Assembly (NCBI GenBank): GCA_016839875.1
Contig: JAEOTK010000137.1
Span: 1-39,247 of the forward strand
Direction of reading: 5' to 3'
From: Candidatus Heimdallarchaeota archaeon
GTDB taxonomy: Archaea > Asgardarchaeota > Heimdallarchaeia > Heimdallarchaeales > Heimdallarchaeaceae
DNA length: 39,247 bases
This document shows, piece after piece, positions 26,880 to 38,736 of this stretch. How positions within the stretch are numbered: the first letter of the stretch is position 1; every line of letters begins with the position of its first letter. Made by a program: the position numbers and the translations under genes. The notes under the pieces were generated by a model. The model did no database searches and was not told where the DNA came from. It saw only the letters and a list, made by a program, of their open reading frames with translations.

Positions 26880-27200
26880 ATGAATAACCCGGAACCATTA
26901 GATGATTTTGAAAGTCTAAAAAAACCTATTTCTTGGATGCTCTCATCGATTCATGCATTTGAAGAAGGGTTATTGGACAAAAAAGCAACATCGAACCTTG
27001 CTAGTAAAGCCTTGAAGAAAATCAGAAAACATACCCCAAATCCAGAAGAAAAAGAGAAATATGAAACAGTTATTGATCTGTGTGTTTCTTTATCAACAAT
27101 AGATAGAGCTGAGAATAATTTCCAAAAATTTTATTTATCAAGTCTTAAAGAAGAGTTAAATAAAGTGTTATCATTACTAGAAGAGGAGAATAATGAGTAA
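26880..27200 (+). CDS. Small helical protein preceding and overlapping the small GTPase
   Basis: No recognised family. The 106 residues are predicted to be almost wholly helical, with segments around ISWMLSSIHAFEEGLL, SNLASKALKKIRKH, KEKYETVIDLCVSL and SSLKEELNKVLSLLEEE, as in a helical bundle. Its 3' end overlaps the GTPase start by eight bases, so the two are translationally coupled and probably made in fixed ratio. A role as a GTPase partner (effector, regulator or membrane adaptor) is an inference from this coupling only. Confidence 0.6.
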   Translation: MNNPEPLDDFESLKKPISWMLSSIHAFEEGLLDKKATSNLASKALKKIRKHTPNPEEKEKYETVIDLCVSLSTIDRAENNFQKFYLSSLKEELNKVLSLLEEENNE

Positions 27201-27723
27201 GCAGCCAGATTATAATTTCAAAATTCTGCTTTTAGGTGATGCAGCTGTTGGAAAAACAAGCCTTGTTCAAAGATTTGTTCATGATAAATTTGACAGCTCG
27301 TATCTTATGACTATAGGGATGGAGCCTTCAGAGAAACATGTAGATTTGAAAGATGGCACAAGGGTAGCACTTTCCATTTGGGATCTTGCAGGACAAGAGC
27401 GTTTTAGATTCATAAGGCATACATTCTATAAAGGAGCAAAAGCTGCTTTGATAGTCTTTGATCTCACACGTTCTGCAACTTTGAAAAGTGTCCAGAAATG
27501 GAATAAAGAAGTTAAAGATAATTGTGGATCGGATGTTGTTAGAATTCTTGTAGGTAACAAAGAAGATCTAAAAAAAGAAATTGCAATTTCAAAGAAAGAA
27601 TGCGAAGAAGCAAATACAAAAATTAAAAGCGAATCTGTAATCCTCACTAGTGCTTTAACTGGTAATCATGTTGAGGATGCATTCACCAAAATTGCAGAAT
27701 TACTTGTCAAGAATGCTAAATGA
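27193..27723 (+). CDS. Ras-superfamily small GTPase (Rab/Ras-like)
   Basis: A compact 176-residue eukaryotic-type small GTPase. G1 is GDAAVGKT (15-22), G2 is the Thr in the switch I segment LMTIGME (Thr40), G3 is WDLAGQE (63-69), G4 is NKED (122-125) and G5 is TSAL (152-155). The WDxAGQE form and LIVFDLTR strand match Rab/Ras/Arf-like families, which are expanded in Asgard archaea. Switch II keeps the catalytic Gln. There is no C-terminal Cys, so it lacks a prenylation site; membrane contact, if any, must come through a partner such as the overlapping upstream protein. Confidence 0.93.
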   Translation: MSKQPDYNFKILLLGDAAVGKTSLVQRFVHDKFDSSYLMTIGMEPSEKHVDLKDGTRVALSIWDLAGQERFRFIRHTFYKGAKAALIVFDLTRSATLKSVQKWNKEVKDNCGSDVVRILVGNKEDLKKEIAISKKECEEANTKIKSESVILTSALTGNHVEDAFTKIAELLVKNAK

Positions 27724-30803: not shown

Positions 30804-31193
30804 ATGACCACTGATGAAGAGCTTGAGAGGATAAGACAAAAGAAAGCTCAAAAATTACTTGAGATTGCAAACATACGAAAACAGAGGATGGAGGAATTAA
30901 AAAACGCAGAACAAGCTCCTCAAAGTGTTGACGAAAATGAAAAAATATCCTTGATGCAATTCTTTCTGGTACCAGAAGCTTTTGAATACTGGACAAGTTT
31001 AAATGAAAATCCTTCCAAAAAACCAACAGCTGAAACTATCTTCAAGAATGTTCTTTATATGATTAAAATTGGATATCTTGAAGGCAGACAGATAACAAGA
31101 ATAGGAATAAAGAGGTTGGAGAGAGATATAGAAGGAATACCTCCATCTATTACTATAAAACGGAAGGGAGAGAAGAAGAAAACAGTCAATTAG
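30804..31193 (+). CDS. PDCD5-like DNA-binding protein
   Basis: Resembles PDCD5/TFAR19, a small archaeal and eukaryotic DNA-binding protein. The N-terminal helix DEELERIRQKKAQKLLEIA, the following basic helix, the middle LMQFFLVPEAFEYW (family: LxQxLxPEARxRL) and the C-terminal ETIFKNVLYMIKIGYLEG with IKRLERDIEG and IKRKGEKKK correspond in order to the family pattern. The sequence is divergent and the alignment was made by eye. The 129-residue length is slightly above the usual 110-125. It stands just upstream of the ubiquitin gene on the same strand, with a separate promoter for the latter. Confidence 0.6.
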   Translation: MTTDEELERIRQKKAQKLLEIANIRKQRMEELKNAEQAPQSVDENEKISLMQFFLVPEAFEYWTSLNENPSKKPTAETIFKNVLYMIKIGYLEGRQITRIGIKRLERDIEGIPPSITIKRKGEKKKTVN

Positions 31194-31225: not shown

Positions 31226-31235
31226 CTTTAATAAT
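31226..31235 (+). promoter_or_regulatory. TATA box of the ubiquitin gene
   Basis: GCTTTAATAATG about 40 bp upstream of the ATG at 31270. Initiation near 31254 leaves a short leader ending in AGGTGA, and it excludes the in-frame ATG codons at 31234 and 31240. Confidence 0.45.
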
Positions 31236-31269
31236 GAAGATGTCAATAAGAAAATTAGGTGAAAGTAAA

Positions 31270-31506
31270 ATGCAAATTAGTGTTGTTACTGCGATTGGTG
31301 GAGGTTCAATTGAGCTAGATGTCGATCCTCATTCTACAGTTGCTCAATTAAAACGAGAAGTTGCTAAGAAGAAGAAAATACCTGCAAATACTGTCATTAT
31401 TGTTTTTCATGGTAAACAGTTGGATGATAGTGAAATCTTGAAACAAACTGGTATGATGGACGGAGATAAATGTTACTTGATTGCCAGAACTAAGGGTGGA
31501 TATTAG
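31270..31506 (+). CDS. Ubiquitin-like modifier ending in Gly-Gly-Tyr
   Basis: A 78-residue protein aligned over its whole length with ubiquitin: MQISVV for MQIFVK, IELDVDPHSTVAQLKREV for the second strand and helix, IVFHGKQLDD for LIFAGKQLED, and CYLIARTKGG for LVLRLRGG. After the Gly-Gly there is one extra residue, Tyr78, so a protease must trim it before E1 activation. Two earlier in-frame ATGs exist, but AGGTGA seven bases before the ATG at 31270 and the ubiquitin-like MQI start decide. The E1-like gene follows 160 bp downstream, then ESCRT genes. No deubiquitinase or JAMM protease is seen here to make the cut. Confidence 0.93.
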   Translation: MQISVVTAIGGGSIELDVDPHSTVAQLKREVAKKKKIPANTVIIVFHGKQLDDSEILKQTGMMDGDKCYLIARTKGGY

Positions 31507-31666: not shown

Positions 31667-32674
31667 ATGACCGAAGAAGACAGATATTCTAGACAACAGC
31701 TGATACCAGGATGGGATCAAGCGAAACTTGATAACAGCACAGCAATTATTGTGGGAGTAGGAGCTATTGGAAGTTACGTAGGTACAATCTTGGTTTCTTC
31801 AGGAATAGGGAAACTCATAATTATTGAATATGATACAGTTGAGATTTCGAATCTTAACAGACAGTTACTTTTTCACGAAGAAGATATAGGAGAATCGAAA
31901 GCTGAAATTGCAGCAAAAAAATTGAAAGTAATTAATCCTAGCATTGATATCAATTATTTAAACATGAAAATGGAAGATGTGCCAGTATCAACATATGAAG
32001 AAGCAGATGTGATAATTGGATGTTTGGATACTTTTATCGGTCGAAGATGGATCAATTCGATGGCTTTAAGAGTTGGAAAACCACTAATTTTAGGAGGAAT
32101 GTTTGCTTTTCTAGGGAATGTGCAGGTTATGATTCCAGATATAACTCCATGTTTTGAATGTCAACCTTTGATCCCAGAAGAAGAACTTGCACAAGCTTGT
32201 ACTCCATTTGGAGATGAAAGAAAAAAAGATCGAGACGAATTGGAAGAAGAGCTGCCTTTACCTGCAGTTGCTACTCTCTCAAGTATTATAGGAGGACTTA
32301 TGGCTCAAGAAGCTCTTAAGATTTTACTCAATTTAGGAACAAATATCGATAATTATCTGTTTTATGATGGATTGAACAATGCCATAACTATACTTACTCT
32401 TGCCAAAAACAAAGAATGTCCAGCATGCGGAGAAATGTATGAGCTTGAGCAAATAGAATTTGTTGTAAATCCTAAAGAAACTGTTAAAGATCTCATTCTA
32501 CGCTTGGCACTTACATATGGACTAGAAAAACCTGATATTATGATACAGGGACAATTACTTGAAATAGATAAGGAAATTGAGGAAACTAACTTATCGCAAA
32601 AAGCTGTAGCCTTTGTTCTAGACAAAAATCTTGCAAAACCCATTAAAATAGTAATCCAAGTACAAGATAGTTAG
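31667..32674 (+). CDS. E1-like ubiquitin-activating enzyme with C-terminal beta-grasp-like domain
   Basis: A ThiF/MoeB/E1-family adenylating enzyme that should activate the neighbouring ubiquitin-like protein. The nucleotide site is GVGAIGS (30-36), with NLNRQ (63-66) and the GCLDT strand (118-122). Zinc is held by Cys162, Cys165, Cys251 and Cys254. The candidate thioester cysteine is Cys178 in ACTPFGDE, placed as in eukaryotic CTxxxxP motifs. Residues about 262-332 form an extra domain (EFVVNPKETVKDLILRLAL to IKIVIQVQ) resembling the ubiquitin-fold domain with which eukaryotic E1s recruit E2. MoeB/ThiF proteins lack this. At 335 residues it lacks the inactive second adenylation half of UBA1, so it probably works as a homodimer. 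Confidence 0.9.
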   Translation: MTEEDRYSRQQLIPGWDQAKLDNSTAIIVGVGAIGSYVGTILVSSGIGKLIIIEYDTVEISNLNRQLLFHEEDIGESKAEIAAKKLKVINPSIDINYLNMKMEDVPVSTYEEADVIIGCLDTFIGRRWINSMALRVGKPLILGGMFAFLGNVQVMIPDITPCFECQPLIPEEELAQACTPFGDERKKDRDELEEELPLPAVATLSSIIGGLMAQEALKILLNLGTNIDNYLFYDGLNNAITILTLAKNKECPACGEMYELEQIEFVVNPKETVKDLILRLALTYGLEKPDIMIQGQLLEIDKEIEETNLSQKAVAFVLDKNLAKPIKIVIQVQDS

Positions 32675-32755: not shown

Positions 32756-34165
32756 GTGATACAAATATCTACAGATGATTTCCTCCTTGCAAATGAAACT
32801 CAATTAATATATGAAAATAGTTCTGGTTTTGAACCAGTTAGAGGAAACCTTAAGCACTGGAAAGGGCATTGTGGGATTATAGAAGGAACAGAAATTCCTA
32901 TTTTTGCTAACATCTATATCCAAGATGGATTCCCAGATATTCCTCCAATAGTTGACATTACTCCAAAAATCAATCATCCTAACGTTGAGGATGATGGTTC
33001 ATTAAGCTTAAGAATTCTTTCTCAATGGAACTCTACCTATCACATATTCCAAGTGGTAAACGATATCAAAGATTTGTTCAACAAAGTTCCAGGGAAACCT
33101 CTAAAAACAAAGAAAGTAAAACGAGCAGAACGTATTGGAGTCTTACCAAGGCTTGAAATCCCAATCAAGCCACTTCCTCAAGCACTAGCAGTTGGAGAAG
33201 CTTCTGAAACTCAATTAGATATTGATAAACGATCTATTGATGGAAGCATTATTGAATATCAAGCAGAGATAGAAAAAATTACCAAAGAAATTGAAGATGA
33301 ACGAGAGGCTCTTTTGAAGGAAGGCGGTGTAAGTATTGAAACTGGGAAAAACGAGATCTCTATATCCAGAGAAGAGGATTTAGAAGCAGATGTTAGAGCG
33401 ATTCAAGACACATTAGAAGTAATTGAAGAAAAATTCGAAGACGGAGATATGACTAATGTGGACTTTCTAAAACTATATAGACGATATTCCAAAAAAGGAT
33501 ATAAAGCAGAAAAATACCTCCAACAGATTAAACTAGGTGCTGATAGTAGTATGACAAAAGAAGAAAGCAAAATTCTTGAATTAGAATCTGATTTGTACGC
33601 ATCTATAGTGACATTAGATAATTTAGTTCAAAGTTACGATAATAATGAGATAGAGCAAATTGCCTATAAAAAACAACTTCGTTCTCTTATTCGAGGAATT
33701 TTCAAATCTCGAATGCAACTAGAGAAAATTGGATTTGATCTTGAAGAATTTGTCAAGAGAGAAAAGATGGATGCTAGATATCCTAAAGGTCTGCAACAAC
33801 TTCGTGTAGTAGAAGGAGTTGAAACAGCTGATGCAATATCCATACCCTTTGACACACTGAAAAAGATGCCAGCTAAAACAGCAGATTTTGTTTCATCGGC
33901 CATAGAATTGATTGATCTTACAAGACTCAAATCTGTAGCTAGAGCAGACTTGCTATTAGCAGACATTGATGAGATGCTTCACATACTGAAAACATTTCCA
34001 TCCATACCCCAAGATCATTGGGCAATAGATGATATGAATACATGGCGTGATATCATTTCAAAATATAAACCTCAAGAAGTAATCAAGGAAGAGGATTGCG
34101 AAAAGTTAGAATTTCAAGCCGCAAGATGGCTTAATGACTTCAGAAGGCTTTTGAAAGAGTTATAG
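32756..34165 (+). CDS. Single-chain ESCRT-I: UEV, steadiness box and Vps28 in one polypeptide
   Basis: A 469-residue fusion. Residues 1-125 are a UBC fold (FPDIPPIVDI, then HPN at 74-76), but the catalytic Cys is replaced by Ser84 in GSLSLRIL, so it is a UEV-like ubiquitin-binding domain, as in Tsg101/Vps23. A Pro-rich linker (115-147) and coiled coil (165-215) follow. Residues about 212-262 match the steadiness box (EDGDMTNVDFLKLYRRYSKK). Residues 272-352 match the Vps28 N-terminal core (LYASIVTLDNLVQSYDNNEI) and 374-467 the Vps28 C-terminal four-helix bundle that binds ESCRT-II in eukaryotes. The start is GTG; an in-frame stop lies 15 bases upstream. Eukaryotes encode Vps23 and Vps28 separately. 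Confidence 0.88.
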   Translation: MIQISTDDFLLANETQLIYENSSGFEPVRGNLKHWKGHCGIIEGTEIPIFANIYIQDGFPDIPPIVDITPKINHPNVEDDGSLSLRILSQWNSTYHIFQVVNDIKDLFNKVPGKPLKTKKVKRAERIGVLPRLEIPIKPLPQALAVGEASETQLDIDKRSIDGSIIEYQAEIEKITKEIEDEREALLKEGGVSIETGKNEISISREEDLEADVRAIQDTLEVIEEKFEDGDMTNVDFLKLYRRYSKKGYKAEKYLQQIKLGADSSMTKEESKILELESDLYASIVTLDNLVQSYDNNEIEQIAYKKQLRSLIRGIFKSRMQLEKIGFDLEEFVKREKMDARYPKGLQQLRVVEGVETADAISIPFDTLKKMPAKTADFVSSAIELIDLTRLKSVARADLLLADIDEMLHILKTFPSIPQDHWAIDDMNTWRDIISKYKPQEVIKEEDCEKLEFQAARWLNDFRRLLKEL

Positions 34166-34234: not shown

Positions 34235-34552
34235 ATGGTGATTGCTGTGATTAGAAGAGATGTACTTAACACACTATTCATTAACATTCGAAAAGATCTA
34301 TTCGAGTTAATCAATATGATAGAAGTAAGAATAGATATAGGTTATATCCTTGAGGAATTAGAAGAAATTTCATATGAAGTTAAGAAGTTGAATATAGAGG
34401 GAGAAAAAATAGCAAAAGAAATGAAAGAGATATATAATTCTCTTTACAAAAACTACGAAAACAAACTTGCTTCTTTTCTATCTTCTAGAGAAGCAAATCA
34501 TCTAATTGATAAAATTGAAAGCTGGTTGCAAGTTCTTCCAAGTTTAATATAA
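34235..34552 (+). CDS. Small helical protein between ESCRT-I and Vps22 genes
   Basis: No recognised family. The 105 residues are predicted helical, with a long charged stretch (YILEELEEISYEVKKLN, then EKIAKEMKEIYNSLYKNYENKL) and a C-terminal SREANHLIDKIESWLQ helix, which would fit a helical hairpin. Eukaryotic ESCRT-I has a headpiece built of three helical hairpins from Vps23, Vps28 and Vps37; the fused ESCRT-I upstream supplies two. This product is therefore a candidate for the Vps37-like third hairpin, an inference from position, size and fold only. The ATG at 34235 is used; a GTG follows immediately. Confidence 0.55.
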   Translation: MVIAVIRRDVLNTLFINIRKDLFELINMIEVRIDIGYILEELEEISYEVKKLNIEGEKIAKEMKEIYNSLYKNYENKLASFLSSREANHLIDKIESWLQVLPSLI

Positions 34553-34625: not shown

Positions 34626-35363
34626 GTGGAGATCAAATTGGGTTTAAGAGACATTGAGAAAAAAATCAAAATCAAATCTGCTTTTCAAGTGAAAGATGCA
34701 GAACTTATGATTAAAGAATTAGAACAAATGATTGAAAACATCAATCAAGTGAAAAAACAACTAAAGAAATTTGAAAATAAATATGGAGATAAAATCTCTG
34801 AAAACAAAGAATATTATGATAAATTGTCAGGTCTCCGAGAAGAATTAGGTCTGCCAGCAGAGATTGGACGCTTTGATTGGAAAGAAGCTCCTTCATTCAT
34901 GGATAAATTGACAGGTAAAGGATTTTATGATATTTTAGCAAATGAAATTCTTGAGCTAGGTCAAAAATTGACACCAGACAATGGAGGGATTATGTCTGTA
35001 GGAGAATTATTCACACAATTAAATAAAACTAGACCTGGAAAAATGGTTTCAATTGATGACATGTATCGTTCTCTTGAAAAGCTAATTAATTCTCAACTTA
35101 TTCCTCCATATAGAATATTGGAATCAAGCACTAAAATTATTGAATTTACTACCGTTGAGTTTAGCCCAGATCACGATATAATCTTGAATTATGCATCTAG
35201 AAACGGATTTGTAACAAAAGAAGATTTACTCATGAGAACTAGCTGGGCAGAAGAAAGAATAGATAGATGTCTAACTTTCTTTGAAGAACATGGAATCGCT
35301 AGAGCAGACAAAAGTTACTCCGAAGGAACCAAATGGTGGTTTCCTGGTTTGATGAGTCTCTAA
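34626..35363 (+). CDS. ESCRT-II subunit Vps22/EAP30-like
   Basis: Matches eukaryotic Vps22 (SNF8/EAP30) along its whole 245 residues. There is an N-terminal helix and coiled coil (25-70), the FYDILANEILELGQKL block (100-115), then winged helix 1 starting with TPDNGGIMSVGELFTQLNK (116-134) and winged helix 2 with HDIILNYASRNGFVTKEDLL (183-202). The end is KWWFPGL, where SNF8 has YWLPAL. In ESCRT-II, Vps22 pairs with Vps36 and two Vps25 chains; no Vps36 gene with a GLUE domain is in the window. It starts with GTG, the overlapping ATG frame stopping after seven codons. It converges on the Vps25 gene. Confidence 0.92.
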   Translation: MEIKLGLRDIEKKIKIKSAFQVKDAELMIKELEQMIENINQVKKQLKKFENKYGDKISENKEYYDKLSGLREELGLPAEIGRFDWKEAPSFMDKLTGKGFYDILANEILELGQKLTPDNGGIMSVGELFTQLNKTRPGKMVSIDDMYRSLEKLINSQLIPPYRILESSTKIIEFTTVEFSPDHDIILNYASRNGFVTKEDLLMRTSWAEERIDRCLTFFEEHGIARADKSYSEGTKWWFPGLMSL

Positions 35364-35384: not shown

Positions 35385-36140
35385 TTAAAATACTTTATCT
35401 GCTTCAAATTGAATGATAGTTTTTTCTTTATTTAGCCATCTTGCTACTTTTCTTTCTACTAGCATTTCACAGACAATTATTAAATCGTCTGCAGGTAGAT
35501 TACTCCATTTTTCCTCGAGTTGTGTGATATCATAAAGCGAATGGATTTCAACTACTCTCCCTGTTTCAATCATGAAACCAAGGAGTTCATCAGCCCATTC
35601 CTCATTATTTCTCCAATAAATTCTTGCTCTTGTTTTGTTCTGTTCATCAAGCCATGTAGCTATATTTTGTTGAACGAGTTGATCAATGATTGCTCGAACT
35701 TGTTCTATTGTTAATCGTTTGCTAAGTTTTTTGTTGTTAAAAGGATATTCTGTTCTTAACTCGTTTATATTGATTATGTGAATGACAAAAATTCGAGAAT
35801 AGTCGAGAACTATTGCAGACCAGCTTTGAAGCCATGATTCCACGTCTGATTCTTTCTTAGGTTTTATGTACATCCATGGAGCTTTTACCCATTTTGGAAG
35901 ACTATCCTCAAATTCCAGTTCCAGAACTGCACGTTGATCTTTTGATAGATCTTCTTTCACAGTTATCTTTTCAACAGGCATAGTAGCTTTTAGATCTTCT
36001 TTAGTAATTTCTAAACCTTTGATACTAGCTTCAATTAATTTCAGTTTCTCCTCTGAGACCTCTTTTTCTTTCTTAAGCTTCTTGAGATCAATATCTTGAG
36101 ATTTCTCTTCTTTTGCTTTTTTCTTTTCAAGAGTTGACAT
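35385..36140 (-). CDS. ESCRT-II subunit Vps25-like
   Basis: Two winged-helix domains as in Vps25. The N-terminal core motif PKWVKAPWMYIKP (82-94) corresponds to the aromatic-proline entry of Vps25, and WLQSWSAIVLDYSRI, the FNNKKLSKRLTIEQVRAII helix region, IYWRNNEEWADELLGFM and EIHSLYDIT follow in the family's order. The first 75 residues are a strongly charged Lys/Glu extension that eukaryotic Vps25 lacks; it may form a helix binding membrane or a partner. In eukaryotes Vps25 engages the ESCRT-III subunit Vps20. It lies 22 bp downstream of the Vps4 gene, giving a Vps4-Vps25 transcript, and converges on Vps22. Confidence 0.9.
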   Translation of the reverse strand: MSTLEKKKAKEEKSQDIDLKKLKKEKEVSEEKLKLIEASIKGLEITKEDLKATMPVEKITVKEDLSKDQRAVLELEFEDSLPKWVKAPWMYIKPKKESDVESWLQSWSAIVLDYSRIFVIHIININELRTEYPFNNKKLSKRLTIEQVRAIIDQLVQQNIATWLDEQNKTRARIYWRNNEEWADELLGFMIETGRVVEIHSLYDITQLEEKWSNLPADDLIIVCEMLVERKVARWLNKEKTIIQFEADKVF

Positions 36141-36162: not shown

Positions 36163-37317
36163 TTATGCACTTCCGAATTCTTCATTCCAATCATCGTATT
36201 TTTGAACTTCATCATCACTTACTGAAGGATTAATTGCTTCTATTGCATCTAAGAAATCGTTTTGAGTAACAGGACGAGCTTTAACTGAAGTATCATCTAT
36301 AGCACCTGCCATATCTAGTTCTCGTATTGGAGTCATAATCGCTTCTCTACAGACCATTGCAATATCCGCACCTGAATATTCTTCAGTTATCTCAGCTAGA
36401 ACTGCGAAATCAGTATCTTCTCCCATCTCTACACCTCTAGTGTTATACTTGAATATTGCTTCTCTTGCTGCTTCATCAGGCAGAGGTATATAGATACGCC
36501 TCTCAAACCTTCTACGAAACGCACCATCAATAGCATCAGGTAAGTTAGTAGCTCCAACAGTTACAATTCGATCAGTCTCTGAACTTGATAAACCATCCAT
36601 AGATGTTAGAAGCTCTGTCTTAACTCGTCGCATAGCATCGTGTTCTCCACCCCTTGCTCCTGCCATTGCATCTACCTCATCAATGAATATTATACTCGGT
36701 TGTCTTTCTTTGGCTAATTGAAATAAAGTCTTAACTAATTTCTCTGATTCTCCTAACCATTTGGAAATAATAGAAGAAGCACTAACATTGAAGAATGTTG
36801 CTTCAACTTCAGCAGCTGTAGCCTTCGCAATCAAAGTTTTTCCACAACCAGGAGGACCAAATAGTAATATGCCTTTCCAGGGTCTTCTCGCTCCTGAAAA
36901 GAGATCAGGTCTCATGAGTGGGAGAACTATTGCTTCTCTAAGAGTTTGTTTAGCAATTTCTAGTCCCGCTATATCTGAGAGAAGTATAGATGGTTTTTCA
37001 GTAACTATAATATCAGAAATAGCACTTGATAGTTTATCATCATCCACATCGCTACCAGCAGTTGATTTTCTTTCCTTTCGTTTTTCAAGTAATTCTTTTA
37101 ATTCCTTTGCTCGTGCTAAATACATCTCTGCTTTTTTCTTCAAAGAACGAGCAACCTGAGGATTGCGTTCGAATTTTATCGCCTTCATTAAAGCTTCTGC
37201 AGCGTCTAAGTAATATGGAATTGCCTCACTGAAATTCTTTTCCTTGTCAAAATTGTATGCTCGTTGAGCAAATTGCTTCGCATGATCTATTAATCCTTGT
37301 GCTGACACTAGAGACAC
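36163..37317 (-). CDS. Vps4-like AAA ATPase with MIT domain
   Basis: Disassembles ESCRT-III filaments. The MIT domain is at about 5-80 (AKQFAQRAYNFDKEKNFSEA, then YYLDAAEALMKAI). The AAA module has Walker A GPPGCGKT (154-161), pore-loop KWLGE (186-190), Walker B IIFIDEVDA (209-217), sensor GATN (255-258) and the RRRFERR arginine fingers (268-274). The C-terminus INPSVSDDEVQKYDDWNEEFG matches the terminal helix of eukaryotic Vps4. It starts with GTG and appears to have its own TATA box (ATTTTATAT, read on minus, at 37361-37369) downstream of the two ESCRT-III genes. The 384 residues are slightly shorter than eukaryotic Vps4; the beta-domain insertion looks reduced. Confidence 0.95.
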   Translation of the reverse strand: MSLVSAQGLIDHAKQFAQRAYNFDKEKNFSEAIPYYLDAAEALMKAIKFERNPQVARSLKKKAEMYLARAKELKELLEKRKERKSTAGSDVDDDKLSSAISDIIVTEKPSILLSDIAGLEIAKQTLREAIVLPLMRPDLFSGARRPWKGILLFGPPGCGKTLIAKATAAEVEATFFNVSASSIISKWLGESEKLVKTLFQLAKERQPSIIFIDEVDAMAGARGGEHDAMRRVKTELLTSMDGLSSSETDRIVTVGATNLPDAIDGAFRRRFERRIYIPLPDEAAREAIFKYNTRGVEMGEDTDFAVLAEITEEYSGADIAMVCREAIMTPIRELDMAGAIDDTSVKARPVTQNDFLDAIEAINPSVSDDEVQKYDDWNEEFGSA

Positions 37318-37451: not shown

Positions 37452-38111
37452 TTAGCCTTTATCCTCACTTACTTTTTTCTTTAAACTTTCAAGCTCTGCT
37501 TCTAGATCAGAAGTATCCTCTTCTTTCTCTCCTGAAGTACCTACAGGAGTGGAAGGCAGACCAGACACATCTGGTAATGAAGTTGTAGTTCCCAAATCCA
37601 TTTCTGCTTCTAGTTGTGCAAGCTGTTCATCAATAGCTGCATCATCCTCAAAATCTAATACTCCTTCAGATAAACTTGGATCGGACAGAGCTTCAGTCAT
37701 CATTTCAATCTGATCTCTTTGCTCCATCACTGTATCCATAACACGTTCAGTTCTCTCAGGTGACACTGTTTTAATCTTTTCTCCAACTACTTTAGTTCCA
37801 AGTTCCATTGCTTGAACTGTATCTGCAGTTGAAGTAGCTGTTTGAATACTATCTATTTGAGCTTGAAGATTCATTGCAGTGTTATGAACTGTATTCAATC
37901 TTTTCATGAAAACAGCTCTTCTTTTCAGAGCTTGACGAGCTCCTGCCTTATTACCTGCTTTAAGCATTTTTGAAGCGAGAACTTTCTGTTCGTCAGCTTG
38001 TCTTTCAAGATTTCTAGATTCAGCTTGAAGTCTGTTTTGCTGTGCTTTCAATGTTGAAAGAGCATCAGCATCTTCTTTTCGTTTTTTACCAAAAAGCCAA
38101 TTTTTAACCAT
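37452..38111 (-). CDS. ESCRT-III subunit, Snf7/Vps20/32/60-like
   Basis: Membrane-remodelling filament protein. The N-terminus MVKNWLFGKKRKE is short, amphipathic and basic, as in Snf7-type subunits. Helices 1-2 (residues 15-90) hold LKAQQNRLQAESRNLERQ and the GARQALKRRAVFMKRL segment, resembling the Vps20/32/60 class. Later helices include MDTVMEQRDQIEMMTEAL. The tail contains two Pro motifs (SLPDV 178-182, GLPSTP 184-189), like MIM2, and a final DLEAELESLKKK (202-213), like MIM1, both able to bind the Vps4 MIT domain. It is 10 bp downstream of the second ESCRT-III gene with GGTGAG before its ATG. Confidence 0.88.
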   Translation of the reverse strand: MVKNWLFGKKRKEDADALSTLKAQQNRLQAESRNLERQADEQKVLASKMLKAGNKAGARQALKRRAVFMKRLNTVHNTAMNLQAQIDSIQTATSTADTVQAMELGTKVVGEKIKTVSPERTERVMDTVMEQRDQIEMMTEALSDPSLSEGVLDFEDDAAIDEQLAQLEAEMDLGTTTSLPDVSGLPSTPVGTSGEKEEDTSDLEAELESLKKKVSEDKG

Positions 38112-38121
38112 TATTACTCAC

Positions 38122-38736
38122 CTAATCCTCTTCTCTTTTTCTTAATTTTTGGATCTCACTTTCTAGATCATCTGTTTCAACTACGCCTACAGAAGGCAAT
38201 CCTGCTTGTGTAGACACTCCTAATTCTGCAGCTGTTTGATCAATCAATCTATCTACCTCATTAGGATCAGTATCGGAGATTAGCAAATCATCAATACCAT
38301 CTTCAATGGTACCTGTTGATTCTTCTATACCATCAATAGAACTTTCCATATCCTGAATAACTCTATCTAAGTCTGGTATTTGTAGTTGAGCATTTGCTGC
38401 TCTTAGAGCTGAAGCCACACCATGCATCTCTTCTGCCATACTAGCTGCAGTATCTGCTCTTTCTAATTTGAAAATTAATCCGTTTATTCGAGAAACTAGT
38501 TTTTGATACCCTAGTTCCCATCTTCTATTTCGAACTATATCTGTTGCAAATAATCTGGCTGATTCTAGGTCTCCGCGTTGAATACTTTGTTTCATTTTTA
38601 GATTCATTTTAGATTCGTCGCGCTCGAGTTTTCTTTGTGCTCTTTCCAATCTACGAACAGTTAATCGAAGATTTATAATATGATCGCGAGGGCTTTTTTG
38701 CGTACCTAATAGCCATCCCATAAAGTTTCGGAACAT
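38122..38736 (-). CDS. ESCRT-III subunit, Vps2/24/46-like
   Basis: Second ESCRT-III subunit, of the CHMP1/2/3 class. Indicators are the basic N-terminal core (LRLTVRRLERAQRKLERDE), RGDLESARLFATDIVRNRR, and a segment close to the CHMP family's MxxVxxALxxANxQLxIP (MHGVASALRAANAQLQIP, 104-121). The tail has LPSV (180-183), like MIM2, and DDLESEIQKLRKRE (189-202), like the MIM1 of eukaryotic Vps2/CHMP1, where the two signals are usually found on different subunits. The N-terminus MFRNFMGWLLG is amphipathic and could insert in the membrane. It is the first gene of the minus-strand ESCRT-III pair, with a TATA box at 38767-38775. Confidence 0.88.
   Translation of the reverse strand: MFRNFMGWLLGTQKSPRDHIINLRLTVRRLERAQRKLERDESKMNLKMKQSIQRGDLESARLFATDIVRNRRWELGYQKLVSRINGLIFKLERADTAASMAEEMHGVASALRAANAQLQIPDLDRVIQDMESSIDGIEESTGTIEDGIDDLLISDTDPNEVDRLIDQTAAELGVSTQAGLPSVGVVETDDLESEIQKLRKREED

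What the first reader, a model, noticed from the sequence alone, without database searches (positions are those of the whole stretch)
32756..34165. ESCRT-I encoded as one polypeptide: UEV + steadiness box + complete Vps28
One 469-residue chain carries, in order, a UBC-fold domain, linker and coiled coil, a Tsg101-type steadiness box (about 212-262), the Vps28 N-terminal core (272-352) and the Vps28 C-terminal four-helix bundle (374-467). In eukaryotes these come from two proteins, Vps23 and Vps28. A fused form could be an ancestral or derived ESCRT-I that guarantees 1:1 assembly. Vps28-like and steadiness-box proteins are known in Asgard archaea; whether this complete four-module fusion has been described I cannot check.
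Basis: partly seen in the sequence, partly recalled or inferred. Interest (0 to 1): 0.85.

Follow-up and report, generated by a model that had tools for sequence, protein, structure and literature searches.

The report
Single-chain ESCRT-I in a Heimdall archaeon
An Asgard archaeon makes two partner proteins of the ESCRT membrane-sorting machine as one chain; this fusion was already reported in 2022, but related genomes show how it probably arose, and one feature hints that the gene may still make the second partner separately.

Summary
Confirmed. ORF 32756-34165 (469 aa) carries a UBC-fold UEV-type domain without the E2 catalytic Cys, a stalk helix, a Vps23 steadiness box and a complete Vps28, inside a ubiquitin/E1/ESCRT-II/ESCRT-III/Vps4 locus. 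The architecture is already in print: Hatano et al. 2022 purified the ortholog HeimAB125_14070 (68% identical, full length), which binds ubiquitin and is said to dimerise. It is not an artefact: 19 of 26 loci found in genome assemblies, one a complete chromosome, have the same frame. It looks derived: of 115 Asgard-type genomes examined, 19 are fused, 56 have separate neighbouring vps23 and vps28 genes, 39 a vps28 without vps23 beside it (one is a contig-cut fusion) and 1 gave no hit. The fused genes form one clade; most of its sister clade has the two genes overlapping by 38-62 nt. In the passages I read I found no mention of the following: Met266, where the separate vps28 would start, is invariant in 47 of 47 fused proteins inside a variable linker. 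It may be a retained, possibly live, internal start for free Vps28; the ribosome-binding evidence is mixed. A downstream 105-aa ORF is a Vps28-C-type four-helix bundle.

The parts
32756..34165 (+). Fused ESCRT-I gene: UEV + stalk + steadiness box + Vps28 (469 aa)
32762..33109 (+). UBC-fold / UEV-type domain (residues ~3-118); HPN motif present; the E2 catalytic Cys aligns to Ser84, and none of 20 aligned fused proteins has Cys in that column
33212..33322 (+). Stalk helix (residues 153-189)
33368..33532 (+). Vps23-type steadiness box (helices 205-228 and 234-259)
   Evidence: Vps23_core
33551..33553 (+). ATG codon of Met266, where separate vps28 genes start; Met in 47 of 47 fused proteins
33557..33814 (+). 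Vps28 N-terminal core (residues 268-353)
33851..34159 (+). Vps28 C-terminal four-helix bundle (residues 366-468)
34235..34552 (+). Stand-alone Vps28-C-type four-helix bundle protein (105 aa) between the fusion and vps22; an ORF of this size lies there in 19 of 20 fused loci (not in L015) and in 20 split loci, six of which were aligned with it
34626..35363 (+). ESCRT-II Vps22/EAP30-family subunit; probable start is the TTG at 34638 after GGAGAT
   Evidence: EAP30 1.6e-18
35385..36140 (-). ESCRT-II Vps25-type subunit
   Evidence: 4.6e-20
36163..37317 (-). Vps4 ATPase (MIT + AAA + Vps4_C)
37452..38111 (-). ESCRT-III (Snf7) subunit
   Evidence: 1.3e-23
38122..38736 (-). ESCRT-III (Snf7) subunit
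   Evidence: 1.5e-19
31234..31506 (+). Ubiquitin; ends in GGY, so the di-glycine would need one residue removed
   Evidence: 5.7e-14
31667..32674 (+). E1-like ThiF-family activating enzyme
   Evidence: 7.8e-59

Best explanation
The gene encodes a single-chain ESCRT-I. The UEV domain should bind ubiquitin on cargo, the stalk and steadiness box should build the headpiece with the Vps28 core, and the Vps28 C-terminal bundle should hand over to ESCRT-II (Vps22/Vps25, encoded next door), leading to ESCRT-III and Vps4. The domain architecture is shown here. Ubiquitin binding and dimerisation are published for the ortholog and inferred for this protein; the ESCRT-II hand-over is inferred. The gene most likely arose once, in the clade that holds Heimdallarchaeum, by merging two adjacent genes, vps23 then vps28, which are still separate in the other Asgard lineages examined and overlap in most members of the sister clade.
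For: Pfam and structure. The same frame in separate assemblies, including the complete chromosome CP084167. Of 115 genomes examined: 19 fused, 47 adjacent (gap or short overlap), 9 overlapping by 38-62 nt, 39 without a vps23 beside vps28, 1 no hit. Careful tree of 53 of 76 rows: fused clade 100/100, fused + sister clade 100/98, sister 98/94, one change of state; the quick tree of all 76 rows agrees. Published biochemistry of HeimAB125_14070 (passages) = P0024, 68% identical over 100%.
Against: No experiment exists on this protein. The UEV score is under Pfam's cut-off (24.0 against 27), so the UBC fold is clearer than UEV membership by sequence alone. The full-length model has pTM 0.37, so the arrangement of the domains is not resolved. 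The root among the separate genes is my choice; the method does not infer it. In the sister clade L021 (24-nt gap) and L085 (genes abut) do not overlap and L096 overlaps by only 26 nt, and short overlaps (1-26 nt) also occur elsewhere, so the order gap, overlap, fusion is not forced. 33 of the 148 genomes with a VPS28 match were not fetched. Hatano et al. call the ESCRT-I genes 'not tightly clustered' in the genomes they compared, which is unlike the adjacency counted here.
Confidence: 0.88

Rival explanations
1. Dual-product gene: the full-length fusion is made from the first start, and a free 204-residue Vps28 is also made by internal in-frame initiation at Met266, restoring an adjustable Vps23:Vps28 ratio.
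For: Met266 is Met in 47 of 47 fused proteins; the 7 other Met columns of the window protein show 4-14 changes on the tree and the other linker columns in 256-273 show 7-17, against 0 for Met266. It sits where free Vps28 starts. Ribosome-binding energy upstream averages -6.1 kcal/mol over 20 loci, against -3.2 at other in-frame Met codons, -1.5 at the gene's own first start and -6.5 at vps22 starts of the same 20 loci. H. endolithica (L016) reads GGAGG, 7 nt, ATG. Precedent in an archaeon: Cas11b from cas8b.
Against: Against a synonymous-codon null the fused genes show little excess (mean -6.1 against -5.7; 1 of 20 loci under 0.05), while true overlapping starts in the sister clade show more on average (-9.3 against -6.3; 1 of 9 under 0.05). 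No conserved motif or spacing; L014 is weak (-3.9). Folding around the codon is not unusually open. Other invariant residues also stand in variable stretches, Glu200 in one as variable. The 20 loci are close relatives, not independent.
Confidence: 0.35
2. Met266 is a fossil of the old start codon kept for a protein-structural reason (turn between the steadiness box and the Vps28 core); only the full-length chain is made.
For: It lies in a short loop between helices 234-259 and 268-295. The SD-like bases are about what the residues would give anyway.
Against: The other Met positions of this protein swap with Leu, Ile or Val; mean model confidence at 261-270 is only 70.
Confidence: 0.55
3. The fusion is the ancestral form of ESCRT-I, later split in other Asgards and eukaryotes.
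For: The named fused loci are labelled Heimdall-type archaea (one 'Asgard group archaeon'), and the Heimdall supergroup is often placed nearest to eukaryotes (PMC10936438, passage).
Against: The fused genes are one nested clade; the other genomes examined have separate genes.
Confidence: 0.04
4. Assembly or frameshift artefact joining two genes.
For: None for this locus. One metagenome contig seems to carry the reverse: a fusion read as two ORFs (P0078 and P0051).
Against: 19 of 26 loci from genome assemblies, one a complete chromosome, have the same open frame.
Confidence: 0.01

Closest known systems
HeimAB125_14070, UEV-Vps23-Vps28 fusion (Hatano et al. 2022, PMC9192718; passages read)
   Same: Same four modules in the same order, 469 aa, 68% identical over the full length (P0024); Vps28 part modelled there as 278-466, the same span as the Pfam match here
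   Different: Another genome in the same fused clade; the words 'overlap', 'internal' and 'start codon' do not occur in its main text, and no passage read mentions Met266
Separate Asgard Vps23 + Vps28, such as Odinarchaeum (PMC9192718; Makarova et al. 2024, PMC10936438; passages read)
   Same: Homologous modules; here often adjacent genes in the same order; Makarova et al. note that vps22 is co-directed with vps23 and vps28
   Different: Two polypeptides; in Odinarchaeota a Vps23 dimer with one Vps28 is reported
Eukaryotic ESCRT-I (Vps23/Tsg101, Vps28, Vps37, Mvb12)
   Same: UEV, steadiness box, Vps28 core and C-terminal bundle; profile hits to human and yeast VPS28 chains
   Different: Separate chains; Pfam named no Vps37 or Mvb12 among the ten locus proteins scanned
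Thorarchaeial Vps5-BAR fused to Vps28 (Eme et al. 2023, PMC10307638; passages read)
   Same: Another Asgard fusion that involves Vps28
   Different: Different partner and lineage
Cas11b from cas8b in Haloferax (PMC11899642; abstract and section 4.1 read)
   Same: Precedent for a second archaeal subunit made by internal in-frame initiation
   Different: Unrelated proteins; shown by experiment there, only a hypothesis here

Membership tests
Heimdall UEV-Vps23-Vps28 fusion | UEV, coiled-coil stalk, steadiness box and Vps28 on one chain | tested here: met
Heimdall UEV-Vps23-Vps28 fusion | Full-length homology to HeimAB125_14070 | tested here: met
   68% identity, 100% coverage; same clade (L018 is AB_125)
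Heimdall UEV-Vps23-Vps28 fusion | Binds ubiquitin through the UEV | not testable with these tools
   published for the ortholog only
UEV domain (PF05743) | UBC fold lacking the catalytic Cys | tested here: met
   alignment (Cys to Ser84)
UEV domain (PF05743) | Score over the Pfam cut-off | tested here: not met
   24.0 bits against 27; UQ_con scores better
Vps28 (PF03997) | N-terminal core and C-terminal four-helix bundle, complete | tested here: met
   profile 2-188 of 188
Vps23 core / steadiness box (PF09454) | Helical hairpin over the cut-off | tested here: met
   30.2 bits against 26.8
Active E2 enzyme | Catalytic Cys | tested here: not met
Stand-alone Vps28-C (ORF 34235-34552) | Homology to Vps28-C and a four-helix bundle | tested here: met
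   against it: no Pfam family over cut-off, no PDB profile match under E 0.4, structural match tied with unrelated bundles

The most novel reading that the evidence does not exclude
A merged ESCRT-I gene that still makes two products: the one-chain UEV-steadiness box-Vps28 protein, and free Vps28 from the preserved vps28 start codon (Met266) inside the fused frame. This would be a gene fusion that kept both the old and the new way of making the complex, so that the Vps23:Vps28 ratio stays tunable.
Probability: 0.35. Interest if true: 0.68.

Novelty: already known. Interest (0 to 1): 0.4.

Why it matters
The fusion itself was described in 2022. What the survey adds is direction: separate neighbouring genes are widespread in Asgard archaea, overlapping reading frames are found in most of the sister clade, and the fusion sits in one clade. 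So the Heimdall one-chain ESCRT-I looks like a side branch and not the form that eukaryotes inherited. If the invariant internal Met is a working start, one gene would supply both the fixed and the free form of a membrane-sorting subunit, and a simple experiment could show it.

Tried and rejected
Assembly artefact: rejected. Ancestral fusion: disfavoured. Borrarchaeum and Sifarchaeum as fused: their long tblastn matches looked like full-length fusions, but the ORFs are two genes. Clean re-splitting at Met266: the 204-aa free Vps28 entries P0049 and P0051 start exactly there, but P0051 shares its source and contig length (3897) with P0078, whose frame breaks about 20 residues before, so this pair is most simply a frame-broken copy; P0049 could not be traced to DNA. 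The Foldseek list of the whole model showed E2-type chains in its 50 printed rows except one VPS37A row; the Vps28-C match comes from the VIA second look. RNA openness around Met266 gave nothing. NCBIfam has no match for the fusion. The paper Lu et al. 2024 (Cell Rep 113781), seen only as a reference in others, is not held and was not read; it may already treat the gene history. The statement that Met266 and the overlapping relatives are not in print covers only the searches, 84 of an open-licence library and the passages read.

Full report

Already described. P0024 is HeimAB125_14070, 469 aa, 68% identical over 100% of the window's protein. Hatano et al. 2022 describe it as a fusion of Vps28 to a UEV-Vps23-like structure with coiled coil and steadiness box, purified it, showed ubiquitin binding by cross-linking and by two-hybrid, and state that it dimerises (passages read, not the whole paper). 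The architecture is therefore known.

Not an artefact. A scan of genome assemblies with two C-terminal peptide patterns gave 26 loci: 19 with the full fused frame, 1 cut at a contig end, 6 with two separate genes. One fused locus is in the complete chromosome CP084167 of Heimdallarchaeum endolithica.

Derived, not ancestral. Around that genome, 227 genomes of the phylum were searched; 148 have a VPS28 match. I fetched loci for 115 of the 148. Of the 33 left out, 3 had full or nearly full matches in 215-218-codon frames (G063, G104, G156), 16 had partial matches, and 14 were not in the printed list. Of the 115: 19 fused; 47 with vps23 directly upstream as a separate gene (gaps, or overlaps of at most 26 nt); 9 with overlaps of 38-62 nt counted from the first possible start; 39 with no vps23 found beside vps28 within the stretch fetched (one of these, G027, is the fused gene cut by a contig end); 1 without a hit (G111, where I fetched the place of a long protein with a partial match). 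In a tree of Vps23 and Vps28 together the fused genes are one clade (100/100); its sister clade (98/94) has the long overlap in 9 of 11 rows; the two together are supported 100/98 (53 of 76 rows, 5 long-branch rows and 18 near relatives dropped). The 76-row quick tree agrees, with 9 of 12 rows in the sister clade. The root among the separate genes is my choice. From the conserved ATG, the nine overlaps are 38-47 nt, all with the same frame offset; 8 of 9 start 58-79 nt after a tyrosine of the steadiness box (not the same residue in all), in a shifted frame. In the window gene, Met266 lies 66 nt after Tyr244, in frame (by count). In G037 (L085) the two genes abut in frame, separated by one stop codon. 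The merger thus needed only a small change, by either route.

The odd residue. Met266 stands where free Vps28 proteins begin. It is Met in 47 of 47 fused proteins; the other seven Met positions of the window protein vary, mostly with Leu, Ile or Val. On a tree built without the linker, Met266 has 0 changes, the other Met columns 4-14, and the other linker columns in 256-273 have 7-17. A Met kept for packing should also tolerate Leu or Ile, so selection on the ATG codon itself is a fair reading; but other invariant residues also stand in variable surroundings, Glu200 in one slightly more variable. The ribosome-binding evidence is mixed. Energies upstream of Met266 average -6.1 kcal/mol in 20 loci, near the -6.5 of vps22 starts in the same loci and stronger than the -3.2 of other in-frame Met codons, and H. 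endolithica has GGAGG seven bases before the ATG. But a null of synonymous codons gives -5.7 on average (1 of 20 loci under 0.05), so most of the signal comes with the amino acids, while real overlapping starts in the sister clade exceed their null more on average (-9.3 against -6.3, though only 1 of 9 under 0.05). The 20 loci are close relatives. Two database entries, P0049 and P0051, are 204-aa Vps28 proteins that begin exactly at this Met; one seems to go with a frame-broken upstream part (P0078), so they do not settle it. Internal in-frame initiation is reported as proven for one archaeal gene, cas8b/cas11b (abstract and one section read).

Verdict. A sound observation of a known protein type, with a clear gene-merger history and one testable loose end. 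Interest 0.40 overall; the dual-product reading has a probability of about 0.35 and would deserve 0.68.

Noticed in passing
34235-34552 (+): Stand-alone Vps28-C-type four-helix bundle protein between the fusion and vps22, with ORFs of like size at this place in 20 split loci; why ESCRT-I needs an extra free Vps28-C is unexplained.
   Followed up: yes
34626-34638 (+): Vps22 probably starts at TTG 34638 after GGAGAT, not at the first GTG 34626; the GLRDIEK start is seen in all 20 fused loci examined, 19 of them (not L016) after a GGAGAT-like site.
   Followed up: partly
30804-31193 (+): 129-aa ORF with weak similarity to the PRK04239 DNA-binding protein family (E 2e-4, far below cut-off); PDCD5-like by recall.
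   Followed up: no
27193-27723 (+): Ras-family small GTPase (PF00071, 3.3e-46) a few genes upstream of the ESCRT locus.
   Followed up: no
31234-31506 (+): Ubiquitin ends in GGY, so its di-glycine is masked by one residue; no deubiquitinase was looked for near it.
   Followed up: no
L020, L022, L043, L049, L058, L079, L084, L088, L089: vps23 and vps28 overlap by 38-62 nt, always the same frame offset (2 mod 3), so the stretch upstream of the vps28 start is coding sequence of vps23.
   Followed up: yes
L021 8685-9611, L033, L038, L041: Some separate Vps28 proteins (280-319 aa) are 70-110 residues longer than the usual ~210, with N-terminal extensions.
   Followed up: no
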